Origin: Zhongshania aliphaticivorans
GTDB lineage: Bacteria > Pseudomonadota > Gammaproteobacteria > Pseudomonadales > Spongiibacteraceae
DNA: 64,000 bases
Assembly (NCBI RefSeq): GCF_001586255.1
Contig: NZ_CP014544.1
Coordinates: 537,001-601,000, forward strand
Reading direction: 5' to 3'
Shown here: piece by piece, positions 40,725 to 47,179 of the stretch
How the letters are laid out: each line of letters opens with the position of its first letter
Numbering within the stretch: position 1 is the stretch's first letter
Position numbers and translations under genes: made by a program
The notes under the pieces: model-generated
Told to the model about the DNA's origin: nothing
Seen by the model: only the letters and a program-made list of their open reading frames with translations
The model's database searches: none

Positions 40725-40759
40725 AAAAACGGCAAATCAAAATATGATTTGCCGTTTTT
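40725..40759 (+). terminator. Strong rho-independent terminator
   Basis: AAAAACGGCAAATCA (40725-40739) pairs perfectly with TGATTTGCCGTTTTT (40745-40759) around an AAATA loop. The A- and T-flanks make it bidirectional. No intact gene ends here now; it may belong to a gene lost when the ISL3 element inserted. Confidence 0.8.
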
Positions 40760-40810
40760 AATGTGGTGGTTATGAGAGTTCCAAAATACGTACTTATTAA
40801 ATGTACTAAA

Positions 40811-40887: not shown

Positions 40888-43800
40888 GTGAAGGAAGACA
40901 CTCAAGATCGGCACAGTACCGACGAAAAGCTCGTGACCTTCAGGCTGCCGTCGCGCTATGAAGGTATATCTGATTGGGCAAACAAGGCCGGCTTTCACGA
41001 TGAGCTGGAGATCGCTTATTTTTGCCTTGGCAGACCTGAGGATCCTCGAGTAATACACAATTTTGCTAGCGAGTTTACCCAGCCAATCTCCGAGCCAATA
41101 TTAGCAGAGTGGGCAGACAAACCGATAGTATCTCGCCTGTGGGAATTCTCAAAATCGCTAAGCAATACCAACGAACATATCCCCAAAGCTGACTCATCCA
41201 TTTCTCACAAAGGAAAATCTGCACAAGGCACTAAGTCTGAGTTTTCCCCACTGACTTCCAGATATTACCTGCTTGCTATGATCGTGAACCCCCGGTCCCA
41301 TAGCGATCAGGACAAAATCGCCGAGAGCCGCCAAAGGCTTCGACTTTGGTTAATCCTTCAGGCAGCTATGCGCATTGCCGAGGAAGGCTGCATCTCCGAT
41401 AGCAATATCAGCTGGGCGGCACGCCATATTACCCTAGACAGGATTGATCCAAAGTGGGAGAAGGTTGATGAATTACTCACCCACGCTCGGCATGAAACTC
41501 AAGGCTTTCCAAACACGTTTCAGTGGTTCAGTTATGCGATAGAAAAGGTTGCATCTGGGCTTTCCGCGCACGCCAATGTTTCTGATAAGCGATTCCTTGG
41601 CGCGATCTCTCCTATTGCCAGAGGCTATTGCAGCCCATTACCCATTTCTGTGGACGTCGATTCCCCAGGCATCTATCCGCAGTTAGGTTCAGTCAGGATT
41701 GAGGGCCTGCCGTTGGGTCTCCTGGACCCGGAACTGCCGGTAATACAAAACCTCCCAAGTACGGCTGACAATGACGAGGACGAACCAGACAGCACGCTCG
41801 TGGAAGTTGACTCATCGGATACTGATGAGGAGCAAGCACTTACTTCTCGGTCTGTCTTTCTCTATTCTGCCGAGGAATCTCAATATTTGCCCTGGAGTTG
41901 GGATAAGCTCTTGCCGCCGGAATTACTTCAATTTGAGGCATGGCTGGAAAACATAGCTAGCTCCAAGGAGCTAGTCCAGTCCCTCGGCGCCGCGATCGCA
42001 AAAATTGGGACTCTTGTCGGGCGCTCGCTTTACCATGCTCAAAGAATCGAGATCGATGCGACTGCTGGGGACGACTGGCGAATTACGCCTGATTATCGTC
42101 ATATTCAACGACAATCGCCGCGTCGACATAGTGCGTGGCGCCCACAATCTCCGCAGGAACAAGCGGAGGTGCACCCATATTCGGAAATCATCCGCTTAGA
42201 GCTCCCGCAAGACATCACATCGGCCTTGAGAAGGGTCGCCAGAGAGCGAGCCGCGGGCAAAGCTACTTTAGGTAGCTTATGGAATGAAGTTAACCCTACT
42301 ACCAAAATCACTACATGGTTTGATGGGGTAGCAAAAGAGCAGTTTCCAAGGGTGACTAGCGGGAAACTGGCCCAAGTAGCAGCGCAGCGAGTTTTCGAAA
42401 ATACTGGCGACCATAATCTTGCTCGAATTGTGACTGCATTGCCGCAAAGTGGACTACCTGCGGCATGTGGTTATGCCAACTGGGATGTAAGCACCATTGC
42501 TAAAGGGCTCGATTTGCCCGTGGTCACAGACAATGTCGACTTAGCGACCTTGATGCTTGGCAGTTTGCTAGCCCCGATTGAATCGGTATTATCTCAAGGT
42601 ATTACTGAAGCAAAATCCTTGTTAGCTGGAGACCAGGATCTCGTTAGCTTTCATAATAGGTATACTCAGTATTGCTTGCTGGCGCTGTATGCGGGTACTG
42701 CTAGCAGGTACTTGAAATCACCTTTTGAACTACTCGACCACTTCAACTTTAAACATCTTTGTGCATACATTAATGATAAGTCGGATGGTGCTCGTCACAA
42801 TGGGCGAATAGTGCCGCTTCCCGAGCAATTGGCCAAGCTACTGGCAGCTTACCTTGATTATCTTGTGCGACTTCAAAAATATCTAGAAGCCTTGCGCCCT
42901 GAGCTGGCTGGAAAATTACTAGCATTACTGGAGCGTAAGGGCGGTGACCTTCCGCTGTTTTTCTTCTTGGATGAGCAACTTAGTTGGCATCAAACATCTG
43001 ACGGCGACCTCCTCGGCTTGCCCATTATTGGCTGGTCACTTCCACCAAACCTGTTTCGGCACCGATATTCGCAGCGACTCGCCCGCGCTGGTGTGCCCTG
43101 CGACGTTATCGATGGTTGGATGGGGCACTCCGAACGAGGAGGCGCGGCTTATGGGGACTATTCGCCTAGGTGTTGGATCAATGATGCGGATCAGTACCGC
43201 CTGGCATATAACGCCATTTATGACTCACTTGGTTTTGATGTTATAGGTGCGCCGGCAGCGTTACCTAGCTACTTAGGCTCACGGGCAAAAAAGCGGAGCT
43301 ATATTGAGCCAAGCATTTATGGCTTAAAAGAAAGAGCTCTGTACCGACGCCAGAGGTATAGAAATGCCCGGAGAATTGCACAGCAAGAAATTAAACTGTT
43401 TATTGGCGAGAAAGAGCTTGAGGATCTAAATCCTACGGAGATCGAAAAGCTCGGGAATCGCATGCTGAAGCGAGAAAATGGACTGCCTCATCCTGACGCC
43501 GGTATTCGATTTCGTGTTCTTGAGCAATTCCTGAAATCAAGAGACAGTAAGCACACTCGCTCTATTAGGAAAAAAATCCTTAAGCGGGAAGAGGAGCGAA
43601 ATCTGATTGCGGGAAGCTTGCCTGCAGATTTGGATCGCTATGAGAACGCAAAACAGTGGGCAAAACATGCGACGATCACCATTCAGAAGGGCTCGGTAAA
43701 TAAAACTACCGCGCTGATTGTCGGTACGATACTGCTATGCATCGATAAAAGGCTAAGCTACCGCGGTATGTTATTGGATGTACTTAACGGACGGAACTTC

Positions 43801-46263
43801 CGGCTCATCCAACATAAGAAGAAATATTTTATTGAATACAGTGAGGAATGGGATACCGGTGATTATGATGCGCCGGTCCAGCGCCATGAAATTAGTTATA
43901 AAACAGCATCCCTGCTTCATTTCGGTTGCACAAATTCACGGCTAGCAGATCTAAACTCTCTGCAAATCCCGTCAGAACTGAATGCGTTAAAAAAGTGCAT
44001 TTCGCCAGACATAGCGAAAGAAGCGTTTTCAGTGAAAGAGTTTTTGACGCAGCTTACTAAAATTATTGGACAAGCTAACCTTATAGAACTCCCTGGGATG
44101 GTGGCTGGCGCGCTCAGTGAAAGAGTGCCACCGACGAGCTTAAATTGGCAGGATATATTTCGGTTGCAACACGGGGTATACATCACGCTACCGAATGTGG
44201 AACCAAACTCGGACGTATTTCAAGACTTTAGGTTTAATCAGAGAGTAGCGATTGAGAGCGACGCCCAAGTTCTCCAAGGCAATGCAAAGGGGCTATACAA
44301 TGAAGTGACAAACATTCTTAGTAACTATGAGAAGAAAAAGGCAAAAAAAATCGCTAAAGAAATCCAAAATTCTTGTCATACTTACCGAGGGAAAGTAAGT
44401 ACGTCAATCCTGATGGTGGCCTACTGGATAAGCCACGTCATAGAAAAAGGAAAAGGCCGGGGTAAGCACCATGTGCCTTACGCCATGAATAGCGTACAAG
44501 ATTACTTCAGCTGTCTACGGCTAGCTTTTCAGGGCTTAGCCTATTCCTGTGACCTACTCTCAATGGATTCCGATGCGATTACCGATCTCTATCATGATAT
44601 GGTGGAATCCCGCAGAGATCGTGGAAGGAAAATCGGATATTTTAGTGAGCGATTGAGGACTTTCCATCGTTGGGCAGTGAAGTTTGGAGTAAAAAATCCA
44701 GACTGGTCTGAAATAGACACTGAAGATAACCACCGGAGTGTAAGCCCCGGGTGTATATCGGAGAAAGAATACTTAGATTGCCAGGAATATATCCGCGCTG
44801 CTTATGGCGAAGATAGCCAACTCGCATTATTTCTAGGGTTTGTGCTTCTACTTACATTCCGGTTTGGGCTGCGAGGAAATGAAGCCTTGGGGTTGCGTCG
44901 CCAAGATTGGTGTCAGTGGCAGAGTTTTACATGGGTGCTTATTCGAGATAACCGAATTCGCCAGCTGAAGCGAAAAAGCAGTCGACGCGCTGTACCGCTG
45001 CTATTCAATCTGACGCCGCATGAAATAGAGCTCATCGAAAAAGTGTTGGCGAATTACGACAGTATTGCGGGGACGGAAAAGAATGCGCCTATGCTTTGTG
45101 AGGTACGCGGCGGGCGCGTTGATCAATGGGCAGCATGCCGTGAAATCCAGGAAACGCTTACTGTTATTTTGCGAACAATTACTGGAAGCAAGACCTTAAC
45201 TCCCCACCATTGTCGCCATGCATTCTATAACCACATTGCCCCAATACTGCTTGGATGTGAAACTCCTACAGGGAGTAAGCTTTGCAAAAACATAGATGCG
45301 GATACATTGCAGGGAGTTGTGTTGGGGCAACATCAAGGTAGATCGATTAGGTCATCGATAGGCTTGGCAAGATTGATGGGGCACAGTGGCGCATCGTCTG
45401 GCCTTAAAAACTACAATCACCTCATGACCGAATGGGCCGATTCGCTCACGCCCGTCAGAACTGAACGAGCACTTGTTATCAATGGTATTTTTAATACGGC
45501 GGAATTTGAACGAATTCACATGGAGAAGTTTCCCCAGGCACCTGATATTTCTTTTCGAGATCCAACACTATTATCGACTATCAGGTTGCTTCGGCTCGTT
45601 GCTCAAGGGAGATCTTACCAAAGTGCAGGGAAGCTAGTCGCATTGCATCCTGACTTTGTATGTTCAGTCCAAGCGAATTTTGACAAAGCCAATGAGGTCA
45701 TGCGTTTTAAAAAACGTGGGGAGAACGGGTGGTTTAAAGGAAAAACAGCGCCTAATGCGATTCTGCACTATATTAATGATTCTGCATGGGTTCGTTTTAT
45801 AGAGCTAGCTGAAAAATTTGAGATCTTTCCGGTACCAGGCTGCCCTGCCGTTGACGAATTACCACTTTTGCTTGGAATGAACAGACAGCTAAAAATGAGT
45901 CATGATCGTCACTGTATAATCGTAAAGCACACGTTTGATATACTCGGCATAGAAAGCAATCGCTATGATGTGTATGCCACTGAAGATGACCCGATAGTGA
46001 CCAGTTTTCTTGTTGAACAGGGATTTCAAGTAAAAACGATTGAAAGAGTCTCTGAGTCTGGAAAAAGTGTGCAACTCGATGTATTCAAACGTCCTGTTGA
46101 AGAAAGACGAGGTGGTATTTATGATTATGGAGCGATAATCATTGGGCCGACCGGTGATGGGGTTGTAAGAAACTCTTATGAAATGGCGGTGGGTTTTCTT
46201 GCAGTTTCGATAATGCTGGTCTGGGGTTCTGAGACTTGCAACAAGATGATGGCTGTCAATTGA
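40888..46263 (+). CDS. Giant protein with two tyrosine-recombinase catalytic domains
   Basis: A single open frame of 1791 residues (GTG start; a stop lies just upstream at 40873). Domain 1: R607 in YAGTASRYLK, N721-L-F-R724 where HxxR is expected, H747 in GWMGHSE, and Y755 or Y758 in AAYGDYS. Domain 2: R1329 in RFGLRGNEALGLR, H1440-H-C-R1443, H1499 in LMGHSG, and Y1509 in LKNYNH. Domain 2 keeps the full R-H-R-H-Y set; domain 1 has lost the first box-II histidine. An acidic linker (DNDEDEPDS) lies near residues 290-315. A 500-residue spacer separates the domains and a 280-residue tail follows. Ordinary integrases are 300-450 residues. The neighbours are an ISL3 element and TA genes, so it probably mobilises an island, but its target site is unknown. 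Confidence 0.85.
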   Translation: MKEDTQDRHSTDEKLVTFRLPSRYEGISDWANKAGFHDELEIAYFCLGRPEDPRVIHNFASEFTQPISEPILAEWADKPIVSRLWEFSKSLSNTNEHIPKADSSISHKGKSAQGTKSEFSPLTSRYYLLAMIVNPRSHSDQDKIAESRQRLRLWLILQAAMRIAEEGCISDSNISWAARHITLDRIDPKWEKVDELLTHARHETQGFPNTFQWFSYAIEKVASGLSAHANVSDKRFLGAISPIARGYCSPLPISVDVDSPGIYPQLGSVRIEGLPLGLLDPELPVIQNLPSTADNDEDEPDSTLVEVDSSDTDEEQALTSRSVFLYSAEESQYLPWSWDKLLPPELLQFEAWLENIASSKELVQSLGAAIAKIGTLVGRSLYHAQRIEIDATAGDDWRITPDYRHIQRQSPRRHSAWRPQSPQEQAEVHPYSEIIRLELPQDITSALRRVARERAAGKATLGSLWNEVNPTTKITTWFDGVAKEQFPRVTSGKLAQVAAQRVFENTGDHNLARIVTALPQSGLPAACGYANWDVSTIAKGLDLPVVTDNVDLATLMLGSLLAPIESVLSQGITEAKSLLAGDQDLVSFHNRYTQYCLLALYAGTASRYLKSPFELLDHFNFKHLCAYINDKSDGARHNGRIVPLPEQLAKLLAAYLDYLVRLQKYLEALRPELAGKLLALLERKGGDLPLFFFLDEQLSWHQTSDGDLLGLPIIGWSLPPNLFRHRYSQRLARAGVPCDVIDGWMGHSERGGAAYGDYSPRCWINDADQYRLAYNAIYDSLGFDVIGAPAALPSYLGSRAKKRSYIEPSIYGLKERALYRRQRYRNARRIAQQEIKLFIGEKELEDLNPTEIEKLGNRMLKRENGLPHPDAGIRFRVLEQFLKSRDSKHTRSIRKKILKREEERNLIAGSLPADLDRYENAKQWAKHATITIQKGSVNKTTALIVGTILLCIDKRLSYRGMLLDVLNGRNFRLIQHKKKYFIEYSEEWDTGDYDAPVQRHEISYKTASLLHFGCTNSRLADLNSLQIPSELNALKKCISPDIAKEAFSVKEFLTQLTKIIGQANLIELPGMVAGALSERVPPTSLNWQDIFRLQHGVYITLPNVEPNSDVFQDFRFNQRVAIESDAQVLQGNAKGLYNEVTNILSNYEKKKAKKIAKEIQNSCHTYRGKVSTSILMVAYWISHVIEKGKGRGKHHVPYAMNSVQDYFSCLRLAFQGLAYSCDLLSMDSDAITDLYHDMVESRRDRGRKIGYFSERLRTFHRWAVKFGVKNPDWSEIDTEDNHRSVSPGCISEKEYLDCQEYIRAAYGEDSQLALFLGFVLLLTFRFGLRGNEALGLRRQDWCQWQSFTWVLIRDNRIRQLKRKSSRRAVPLLFNLTPHEIELIEKVLANYDSIAGTEKNAPMLCEVRGGRVDQWAACREIQETLTVILRTITGSKTLTPHHCRHAFYNHIAPILLGCETPTGSKLCKNIDADTLQGVVLGQHQGRSIRSSIGLARLMGHSGASSGLKNYNHLMTEWADSLTPVRTERALVINGIFNTAEFERIHMEKFPQAPDISFRDPTLLSTIRLLRLVAQGRSYQSAGKLVALHPDFVCSVQANFDKANEVMRFKKRGENGWFKGKTAPNAILHYINDSAWVRFIELAEKFEIFPVPGCPAVDELPLLLGMNRQLKMSHDRHCIIVKHTFDILGIESNRYDVYATEDDPIVTSFLVEQGFQVKTIERVSESGKSVQLDVFKRPVEERRGGIYDYGAIIIGPTGDGVVRNSYEMAVGFLAVSIMLVWGSETCNKMMAVN

Positions 46264-46297: not shown

Positions 46298-47179
46298 TCA
46301 GCCAAGAACTTCTATGTCTTTGAGAGTAAAGGTTGGTTTGTCGGGCCGCTTCTCAAAAACTTTATCGGCGATATAGCGAATTTTCTTGCCAAAATGCTTA
46401 GCGTCGTTGAGCTTCTTGAAAAGTTTCGTGTCTTGTATTACAAAGTCTTTGGATGCCTCTACAATTCCAACGGAATCAAAAATATTCAGATACGCCGTAT
46501 TACGAAACTCTCGAAAACCGTCGACTGTCGCCAGTCCGGAAACTTTTTCTGCGGGAGGAAGATCAAATTCGAAGTTGTCAAACTCATCATAAAATCCAGT
46601 AGGTGCATTAGTCGAATTCAGATTTTCAATTCCAAACGGATGTGCGATTTTTATGCCGGACATGCGTTTACGTAGCTCATTAATCTGATCTGTAAGAAAT
46701 ACGACTTCCGGGGCAAGGAGCCCGGTTGACTCATCTCTGAAGAATAAATCCGGCTGGCTTTGCTGGACTCTGGCGCAGACGAATCCAGTGACATGAGATA
46801 GCTTCTCCGCTATTTCTCCAGCCTCATCAGAACCAACTAAAAATAAACACGTTCTCTGGTTCCGACTAATCTTAGAATTCTTGGCAGTCAAGTTTCGAGT
46901 AGACACGCTGACGTCGACTCCTGAGTAAAATTTTTCTATAACAGCGTTACATATGCATTTTAATTCGCCGGCAAATTTTTTCCGCACTCGAGAGCCAACA
47001 TCTTCATCATCATCGGTTGCAACCCAGTCTTCATTGAGATGAGTAACCAAGGAGCTTTGCGGAAAAAGGTATGCGAAAGGGATCCCGAATTCTGTTAGCT
47101 TGCGACCCAGAAATTTTACTGATTCGAGCTCAAATTTTTCGCCAAGAGAATATTCTGTTTTTTTCATATCCGTTTCCAT
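46298..47179 (-). CDS. Unknown protein convergent with the dual recombinase
   Basis: A 293-residue protein I do not recognise. ATG at 47167 (MKKTEYSLGEKFE) has GGAAACGGAT just ahead and may be the true start instead of 47179. The middle contains a strand-like TCLFLVGSDEAGEIAEKLS. No transmembrane segment, signal peptide or clear catalytic motif is seen. It is soluble and slightly acidic. It ends 34 bp from the recombinase stop with a shared hairpin, so it belongs to the same island. A regulatory or accessory recombination role would only be a guess. Confidence 0.6.
   Translation of the reverse strand: METDMKKTEYSLGEKFELESVKFLGRKLTEFGIPFAYLFPQSSLVTHLNEDWVATDDDEDVGSRVRKKFAGELKCICNAVIEKFYSGVDVSVSTRNLTAKNSKISRNQRTCLFLVGSDEAGEIAEKLSHVTGFVCARVQQSQPDLFFRDESTGLLAPEVVFLTDQINELRKRMSGIKIAHPFGIENLNSTNAPTGFYDEFDNFEFDLPPAEKVSGLATVDGFREFRNTAYLNIFDSVGIVEASKDFVIQDTKLFKKLNDAKHFGKKIRYIADKVFEKRPDKPTFTLKDIEVLG

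What the first reader, a model, noticed from the sequence alone, without database searches (positions are those of the whole stretch)
40888..46263. One protein carries two tyrosine-recombinase catalytic domains
The 1791-residue frame holds two separable sets of recombinase boxes, R607/R724/H747/Y755 or Y758 and R1329/H1440/R1443/H1499/Y1509. The second has every expected residue; the first has N721 where the first HxxR histidine should be. The 500-residue spacer and the long N- and C-terminal parts match no integrase I know. Trio-type systems (three separate recombinases) exist, but a single dual-domain chain of this size beside TA genes is unusual. It could be an intramolecular pair, with one domain structural and one catalytic, driving a new kind of island.
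Basis: partly seen in the sequence, partly recalled or inferred. Interest (0 to 1): 0.8.

Follow-up and report, generated by a model that had tools for sequence, protein, structure and literature searches.

The report
Two-headed recombinase of tRNA-Met islands
A single giant protein joins two DNA-recombining enzymes that related bacteria make from neighbouring genes; it sits at the edge of an island inserted in a tRNA gene and is very probably the enzyme that inserts it.

Summary
One 1791-residue frame (40888-46263 +) carries two tyrosine-recombinase domains. It is not an assembly artefact: 11 full-length copies, one a paralogue in the same genome, occur in 9 genomes of 3 genera. In relatives the same two domains occur as two adjacent genes (13 of 13 intact split loci opened), as one 1240-1350 aa protein behind a separate ~540 aa gene (4 loci), and as other full fusions (3 loci). 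So this chain is the fused form of a co-inherited recombinase pair.

Domain 2 is canonical (R-K-H-R-H-Y). Its tyrosine (Y755) is present in all 13 copies of this clade but lost in 17 of the 20 other relatives.

Twelve of the 13 copies lie beside a displaced piece of tRNA-Met that ends at its anticodon loop; 8 of 20 other relatives show the same rule with tRNA-Met, -Arg, -Asp or -His. In this clade the displaced piece has lost 5-32 nt just before the loop, which is unexplained.

Best reading: the island's integrase, a covalent pair of unequal recombinases. It resembles SE and GInt islands but is not recognisably SE or GMT. Activity is untested.

The parts
40725..40759 (.). Hairpin AAAAACGGCAAATCA-5 nt-TGATTTGCCGTTTTT. 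Read on the - strand it looks like the tRNA-Met transcription terminator, left outside the island
   Evidence: Perfect 15-nt arms; a similar hairpin lies next to most of the tRNA-Met genes of the genus shown
40764..40767 (-). TGGT: last trace of the displaced tRNA-Met 3' end (other copies keep 12-29 nt more of it)
   Evidence: Comparison of left ends
40768..40776 (.). GGTTATGAG, left end of the element. TTATGAG is the complement of the tRNA-Met anticodon loop; presumed crossover site
   Evidence: Identical at 12 of 12 left ends; found at 40768
40790..40806 (.). Palindrome GTAC-TTATTAAAT-GTAC, possible operator or recombinase arm site
   Evidence: Read by eye; a palindrome of differing sequence lies at a similar place in several other left ends. 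No statistical test
40888..46263 (+). Gene of the fused two-domain recombinase, 1791 aa
40888..42612 (+). N1, residues 1-575: N-terminal part. Its last ~230 residues match the N-terminal part of the first gene of the split pair
   Evidence: hhalign, part of 311-794 against S2; no Pfam family
42613..43257 (+). Domain 1, residues 576-790: N-box recombinase domain (R607, K631, N721, R724, H747, Y755)
43258..44472 (+). Spacer, residues 791-1195; its last ~160 residues match the second gene of the split pair
   Evidence: hhalign 1033-1514 against S3
44473..45462 (+). Domain 2, residues 1196-1525: canonical recombinase domain (R1329, K1361, H1440, R1443, H1499, Y1509)
45463..46260 (+). C-terminal part, residues 1526-1791, unknown
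   Evidence: Conserved in the clade; dN/dS 0.12-0.25
46298..47179 (-). Convergent 293-aa gene of unknown function, usual neighbour of the fused gene
   Evidence: Homologue beside 9 of the 13 copies (window, G008, G005a, G003, G001, G004, G013, G000b, G614) and beside truncated G534; elsewhere in the G685 island; not found beside G005b or G010. The two most distant, G013 and G000b, helped to build the profile; their pairwise support is E 1e-4 to 1e-6

Best explanation
The gene encodes the integrase of a family of genomic islands that insert into the anticodon loop of tRNA-Met. The protein is the fused form of two recombinases which relatives encode as adjacent genes. SHOWN by comparison: two recombinase domains in one chain, conserved in 11 full-length copies; the same pair split at two different joints in relatives; a canonical active-site set in domain 2; an invariant N-box set in domain 1 whose tyrosine is optional across the family but present throughout this clade; the gene always next to the end of the element that abuts the tRNA fragment (12 of 12). 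INFERRED: each chain occupies one att site as a covalent unequal pair, domain 2 on one half-site and domain 1 on the other; two chains synapse into the usual four-domain recombination complex; domain 2 makes the first strand cut with Y1509 within the 7-nt loop sequence; domain 1 positions the partner half-site and, in this clade, may make the second cut with Y755. In relatives without that tyrosine the second exchange would be left to replication or repair.
For: Superfamily: Pfam, NCBIfam Xer models below their cut-offs, Foldseek of the C-half model with XerH, IntI4, Cre and Flp in all of ranks 1-21 (best E 2.6e-5), profile of the N half to XerA 4a8e E 0.0012. Residues. One chain equals two genes: hhalign 311-794 to S2 E 5e-32, 1033-1514 to S3 E 2e-35, 582-1514 to F3 E 1e-45, 553-1529 to F2 E 1e-30; S2 directly upstream of S3 on one strand in 13 of 13 intact split loci opened. 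Co-inheritance: distance correlation 0.968 (31 loci) and 0.966 (13 split loci, 0 of 10000 permutations as high). Constraint: dN/dS 0.07-0.25 over five regions in five of six pairs. Integrase position and target: 12 of 12 left ends; 8 of 20 other loci hold a tRNA piece within 700 nt upstream, all 8 ending at or within about 3 nt of the anticodon loop. Islands with an intact tRNA-Met at the far end: G008 29.6 kb, G010 6.4 kb, G685 27.7 kb, G614 52.8 kb.
Against: No recombination was observed: nothing here shows excision, a circle or an empty site within one strain. The model of the N half is poor (mean pLDDT 43.9, pTM 0.37) and its Foldseek matches, though recombinases in ranks 1-12, have E 0.08-0.65. 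A single-sequence search of the C half against the PDB found no recombinase. Y755 lies 8 residues after H747, against 9-10 in the recombinases I recall, so its role as nucleophile is assumed from its place. At the left end the tRNA fragment lacks 5-32 nt, which a simple conservative exchange in the anticodon loop does not predict. 12 of the 20 other loci showed no tRNA piece by the patterns used. The far end of the window's own island is not defined: another integrase gene and a second fused gene lie between it and tRNA-Met. G534 is cut at its 5' end and G010 at its 3' end.
Confidence: 0.72

Rival explanations
1. Both domains are full catalysts in this clade: a XerC/XerD-like pair in one chain that makes both strand exchanges in turn and so excises cleanly.
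For: Y755 in 13 of 13 clade members, with R, K, N, R and H invariant; dN/dS of domain 1 is 0.10-0.14 in five of the six pairs and 0.24 in the sixth.
Against: The HxxR histidine is Asn in 33 of 33; outside the clade the tyrosine is lost in 17 of 20 while the rest of the pocket stays, so that pocket is kept for something other than cleavage there.
Confidence: 0.35
2. Domain 1 never cleaves: it is a DNA-binding and allosteric partner, and only one strand is exchanged, as proposed for SE elements.
For: Loss of the tyrosine in 17 of 20 relatives outside the clade and an invariant Asn; SEs circularise with strong strand bias and carry a recombinase-fold protein without the RHRY motif (PMC10214605, passages).
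Against: The tyrosine is kept in all 13 members of this clade and in 3 of 20 others.
Confidence: 0.45
3. The fusion has no special function: stop codons between translationally coupled genes are lost now and then.
For: In split loci the two genes often overlap by a few codons, and fusions sit on at least two separated branches of the tree.
Against: The fused state has persisted from 95% down to about 36% identity in three genera without a re-split copy among the 13 found; the joint falls at different places in different lineages.
Confidence: 0.4
4. Assembly or frame artefact joining two genes.
For: Two adjacent genes do occur in relatives.
Against: 11 full-length copies in 9 genome assemblies, two of them in one closed genome, and purifying selection across the joint.
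Confidence: 0.01

Closest known systems
SE, strand-biased circularizing integrative elements (intA-tfp-intB-srap), PMC10214605
   Same: Island moved by more than one tyrosine recombinase, one of them a recombinase-fold protein with a degenerate active site; coupled genes at one end of the element; target specificity.
   Different: SE proteins of pAQU1 show no detectable similarity to any of these proteins (best hhalign probability 20%, single SE sequences); four separate genes of about 545, 614, 671 and 161 aa; Tfp is said to lack RHRY, whereas domain 1 here keeps R, K, R and H; the split form occurs in an alphaproteobacterial plasmid, where the paper found no SE homologues.
GInt, genomic islands with three integrases (ginABCD), PMC5385486
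   Same: Tripartite island with a recombinase operon at one end and varied cargo; one recombinase (GinC) lacks a catalytic residue; flanking imperfect repeats.
   Different: Three recombinases plus GinD against one fused chain, or a pair plus a ~200-aa protein in the split form; GInt targets named in the part read are an ABC-transporter gene and ssb, not tRNA anticodon loops. No GInt sequence was compared.
Gamma-mobile-trio (GmtX, GmtY, GmtZ)
   Same: Island type named after a trio of recombinase-associated proteins; defence genes as cargo (recalled, and passages in PMC12715929).
   Different: The GmtY model (441 positions) has no match over its cut-off in this genome, and its weak matches are not at the fused genes; no Gmt model among the NCBIfam hits of the fused and split proteins.
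XerC/XerD and other tyrosine recombinases (Cre, XerH, IntI)
   Same: Catalytic boxes and, for domain 2, the fold.
   Different: These are single-domain proteins acting as separate subunits; here two catalytic domains lie in one chain with a ~400-residue spacer.

Membership tests
Tyrosine recombinase superfamily (domain 2) | R-K-H-R-H-Y catalytic set | tested here: met
   R, E, K, R, R, H and Y in 32 of 32; the HxxR histidine is H in 28 of 32, Y in 2, Q in 2
Tyrosine recombinase superfamily (domain 2) | Catalytic-domain fold | tested here: met
   C-half model: Foldseek ranks 1-21 are all tyrosine recombinases, best E 2.6e-5, prob 1.00, though mean pLDDT is 51.3
Tyrosine recombinase superfamily (domain 1) | R-K-H-R-H-Y catalytic set | tested here: not met
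   Asn replaces the HxxR His in 33 of 33; Tyr present in 16 of 33, among them all 13 of this clade. The rest of the set is invariant
Tyrosine recombinase superfamily (domain 1) | Catalytic-domain fold | tested here: inconclusive
   Foldseek ranks 1-12 are recombinases (XerA, Tn1549 Int, XerD and others) but E 0.08-0.65 on a low-confidence model; profile match to XerA 4a8e E 0.0012
SE (strand-biased circularizing integrative element) | Homologues of IntA, Tfp, IntB and Srap | tested here: not met
   hhalign of eight family profiles against four pAQU1 proteins: best probability 20.4% (S3 against IntA); all the others 3.5% or less. Which pAQU1 gene is which was assigned by me from order and neighbouring blaGMA-1. 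Single sequences, so a weak test
SE (strand-biased circularizing integrative element) | Circular joint carrying one flank's 6 bp; no empty site formed | not testable with these tools
   Needs living cells
GInt | ginABC three recombinase genes plus ginD | tested here: not met
   Gene content only: fused form has one recombinase gene, split form two; no third recombinase was seen in the operons opened. No sequence comparison with Gin proteins
Gamma-mobile-trio | GmtY family membership at the curated cut-off | tested here: not met
   NF040693.1: 0 matches over cut-off in the genome. Whether models for GmtX and GmtZ are held was not checked
RIT (recombinase in trio) | Three recombinases of 315-410 aa, all with catalytic Tyr (as given in PMC10214605) | tested here: not met
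   Number and sizes of genes differ, and the tyrosine of domain 1 is absent in 17 of 33
tRNA-integrated genomic island | Recombinase gene beside a displaced tRNA fragment, intact tRNA at the other end | tested here: met
   12 of 12 left ends; intact tRNA-Met at the far end in G008, G010, G685 and G614. For the window's own copy the far end is not resolved

The most novel reading that the evidence does not exclude
A new design of site-specific recombinase: a covalent heterodimer in one chain, one half canonical and one half an invariant N-box partner with an optional nucleophile, specialised for cutting inside tRNA anticodon loops. In this clade the regained or retained second tyrosine goes with an unusual exchange that trims 5-32 nt from the displaced tRNA half immediately before the loop, so that integration is precise on the element's side and lossy on the host's side. 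The family as a whole (fused, split at two different joints) would be a separate lineage of multi-recombinase islands beside SE, GInt, RIT and GMT.
Probability: 0.25. Interest if true: 0.85.

Novelty: new variant of a known kind. Interest (0 to 1): 0.62.

Why it matters
Tyrosine recombinases work as assemblies of separate subunits, and how unequal subunits share the work is studied mostly in XerC/XerD. A natural single-chain pair fixes the stoichiometry and allows either domain to be disabled on its own. Relatives that have lost only the second tyrosine make the question of one-strand against two-strand exchange in multi-recombinase islands directly testable within one family. The tRNA anticodon-loop rule gives defined att sites for such tests, and in one relative the island carries a BREX defence cluster.

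Tried and rejected
Gamma-mobile-trio membership: rejected by the GmtY model and by the NCBIfam scans. SE membership: no detectable homology. Homology of the convergent ~290-aa gene with the ~200-aa gene of the split operon, or with the gene upstream of the F2 fusions: none. Defence-gene identity of the recombinases: no PADLOC match of note. Phage or plasmid copies of the fused form: none in plasmids or phages by tblastn; viral contigs gave none with the fused profile or the paralogue, but a scan with the split second protein gave five loci, one of them a distant 1795-aa fusion.

The left-end hairpin was first taken for a recombinase core site and then rejected, because a similar hairpin lies beside tRNA-Met genes without a fused gene. 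Simple conservative exchange in the anticodon loop as a full account of the left end was not accepted: it predicts an untrimmed tRNA half. Slippage deletion after integration was considered; it does not explain why one deletion edge is the same at all 12 ends, but it is not excluded.

Limits of the counts. Split loci opened: 13 intact (L032-L036, L105-L108, L154, L156, L162, L163) and a 14th, L037, whose first gene is cut by an insertion. Many further hits were not opened (for instance 241 plasmid records, of which four regions were opened). Genome samples: 57 relatives, 369 of the class, 390 of the order, overlapping and partly drawn. dN/dS was saturated in four of five regions for window against G004. 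The tree is midpoint-rooted; branches inside the clade near G013 have support 30-34. The N-box and tyrosine counts rest on MAFFT alignments of domains found by profiles built partly from the same sequences.

Literature: the listings (open PubMed Central library only) showed no paper on a single-chain protein with two tyrosine-recombinase domains of this kind. Seen: PMC5385486 abstract, first part of Results, passages; PMC10214605 abstract, first part of Background, passages; PMC12715929 and PMC12039261 passages; PMC8138268 a passage search only; PMC9345347 listing only. The GMT paper itself was not seen.

Full report
1. The gene. Window 40888-46263 (+) is one open frame of 1791 codons. The window is part of a closed 4.2-Mb genome; named near relatives are Zhongshania and Spongiibacter thalassae. 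The same genome has a second full-length copy at 613637-619018, 38% identical. Among 57 relatives searched, full-length copies occur in 7 of the 18 genomes of the genus, 9 copies in all. In a sample of 390 genomes of the order two more lie in two other genera (G685, 1807 aa; G614, 1800 aa); a sample of 369 genomes of the class showed the fused form only in the home genome. That makes 11 full-length copies in 9 genomes and two cut copies: G010, whose 3' part is gone next to genes that look by eye like an IS21-type pair, and G534, which lacks the 5' part. One carrier, G003, is an incomplete assembly (84% complete, 7% contaminated). dN/dS is 0.07-0.25 in all five regions of the protein for five of six pairs; the sixth pair is saturated in four of five regions. 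An assembly artefact is therefore excluded.

2. The domains. Domain 2 (about 1196-1525) matches Pfam Phage_integrase and NCBIfam XerC/XerD models well below their cut-offs; its model matches XerH, IntI4, Cre and Flp (Foldseek ranks 1-21, best E 2.6e-5) although mean pLDDT is only 51.3. Domain 1 (about 576-790) is harder: its model has mean pLDDT 43.9, with the region 580-780 better than the rest; Foldseek ranks 1-12 are tyrosine recombinases but none reaches E 0.001 (best 0.08, prob 0.96); a profile of the N half finds XerA (4a8e) at E 0.0012. A single-sequence search with the C half found no recombinase in the PDB.

3. The residues. Over 33 domain-1 sequences of all classes, N721, R724 and H747 are invariant (33 of 33), as are R607, D630 and K631 in the 32 that cover them. 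The presumed nucleophile is Tyr in 16 of 33: all 13 members of this clade, one other fusion (V164) and two split forms (Vibrio, Dinoroseobacter); otherwise F (11), W (2), I, L, A and M (1 each). Over 32 domain-2 sequences R, E, K, R, R, H and Y are invariant; the HxxR histidine is H in 28, Y in 2 and Q in 2 (after). Y758 is not conserved.

4. One chain, two genes, other joints. In 13 of 13 intact split loci opened, a 743-875 aa protein with domain 1 lies directly upstream of a 995-1120 aa protein with domain 2 on the same strand. A ~200-aa protein precedes them in 10 of the 13 (7 of these built its profile). Profile alignments: fused 311-794 with the first protein (E 5e-32), 1033-1514 with the second (E 2e-35). 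In four loci (F3: G687, G718, G487, G198) both domains lie in one 1238-1350 aa protein behind a 521-567 aa gene; this aligns with fused 582-1514 (E 1e-45), and the short gene aligns with the N-terminal part of the split first protein (E 1e-9; its direct match to the fused N-terminus is not significant, probability 3.5%). Two further full fusions, F2 (G680, G627), align at 553-1529 (E 1e-30), and one viral-contig locus (V164) has a 1795-aa fusion. In a tree of 32 loci this clade and F2 group together (support 100), F3 groups (100), and V164 lies among split forms (85). The same assembly has therefore been cut or joined at different points more than once. Distances of domains 1 and 2 are correlated (0.968 over 31 loci; 0.966 over 13 split loci, 0 of 10000 permutations as high). 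Adjacent genes inherited together would give this too, so it shows co-inheritance and not contact.

5. The site. Upstream of every copy of the clade whose left end could be read (12; G534 has none in the 17 kb fetched) is the 3' end of a tRNA-Met gene on the other strand, followed by GGTTATGAG, in which TTATGAG is the complement of the anticodon loop. Each of the 18 genomes of the genus also has at least one full match to the tRNA-Met pattern. An intact tRNA-Met closes the island at the far end in G008 (29.6 kb), G010 (6.4 kb), G685 (27.7 kb) and G614 (52.8 kb). Direct repeats between left flank and right end are longer than the tRNA piece: 120 bp (88%) in G008, 122 bp (91%) in G010, 242 bp (96%) in G685 with a whole second tRNA-Met in it, and at least 313 bp (96%) in G614; in G013 two contig ends share 367 bp. 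For the window copy the far end is not resolved: the next tRNA-Met fragment is at 613443, the intact gene at 721219, and another integrase gene (Arm-DNA-bind_2 plus Phage_integrase) lies in between.

6. The family rule and the exception. Among 20 loci of the other classes, 8 have a tRNA piece within 700 nt upstream of the operon by simple T-loop and D-arm patterns; read by eye they are tRNA-Met (3), -Arg (3), -Asp and -His (1 each; the last two named from recall), and all 8 end at or within about 3 nt of the anticodon loop (intact tRNA-Met and tRNA-Arg by ARAGORN). The two split-type elements at tRNA-Met in this genus keep the stretch before the loop untrimmed. In the fused clade it is shortened at all 12 ends, by 5 nt (G010, G685, G614), 8 (G013), 16 (two paralogues), 18 (G003), 19 (G008, G001, G004, G005a) or 32 nt (window), always right up to GGTTATGAG. 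An orphan end of this type with 23 nt lost and no fused gene lies at G002:C17:1573. Because 19 nt recurs at 38-ish to 11% protein divergence with different outer flanks, the shortened form is probably carried by the element in part of the clade; variation elsewhere speaks for repeated loss. I have no tested explanation.

7. Mechanism. Shown: the anatomy above. Inferred: the chain acts as the island's integrase, as integrase genes usually sit beside one att site; it binds an att site as a covalent unequal pair; domain 2 cleaves within the loop sequence; domain 1 is the partner, with a second nucleophile in this clade. The published SE and GInt islands show that recombination can depend on a canonical recombinase plus a recombinase-fold partner with a degenerate site (PMC10214605, PMC5385486, passages), so the way of working is plausible; membership in SE is not supported by sequence, in GMT not by the GmtY model, and GInt proteins were not compared.

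8. Cargo. In the window the fused gene is followed by a convergent 293-aa gene of unknown function, antitoxin-like genes, a DDE transposase gene, and a TetR-like to thiolase cluster of acyl-CoA/oxidoreductase type (the TetR label is by eye). Whether that cluster belongs to the same element is open. The G685 island carries BrxL, PglZ, PglX and BrxC.

9. Verdict. I rate it a new variant of a known kind.

Noticed in passing
L146:7880-8071 and L169:15562-15791 (G685); L147 and L174 (G614): The island's right end carries a copy of a whole tRNA-Met gene plus spacer, making a 242-313 bp direct repeat, much longer than usual att repeats.
   Followed up: partly
L157:1573-1593 (G002:C17): Left end of the fused-clade type (GGGGGC joined to GGTTATGAG) with no fused gene behind it: an orphan or decayed element.
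   Followed up: partly
L096 (G001:C9:240300) and L097 (G007:C1:1321838): A further element type at tRNA-Met, with an untrimmed tRNA half followed by AAATCC; not identified.
   Followed up: no
L034:616-8923 and L033:4123-12378: AbiE-type toxin-antitoxin genes sit between the ~200-aa gene and the recombinase pair of the split operon.
   Followed up: partly
L088 and L077 (left of the intact tRNA-Met in G000 and G012): Identical 1500-bp stretches encoding what looks by eye like a large serine recombinase abut the tRNA-Met 3' end in two species.
   Followed up: no
window:39326-40516, L025:8908-10098, L029:12700-13893: An ISL3-family transposase gene lies shortly left of the tRNA fragment at three of the fused loci, in the same orientation as the fused gene.
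   Followed up: no
window:40790-40806 and the other left ends: A short palindrome whose letters differ between elements lies at a similar place between the att end and the fused gene; possible operator or arm site.
   Followed up: no
L154:8212-9062 (G593): Decayed pieces resembling the spacer and domain 2 of the fused clade lie directly behind an intact split operon.
   Followed up: no
L146:13670-18415 and L169:629-9394 (G685): A BREX defence cluster (BrxL, PglZ, PglX, BrxC by PADLOC models) is cargo of a fused-type island.
   Followed up: partly
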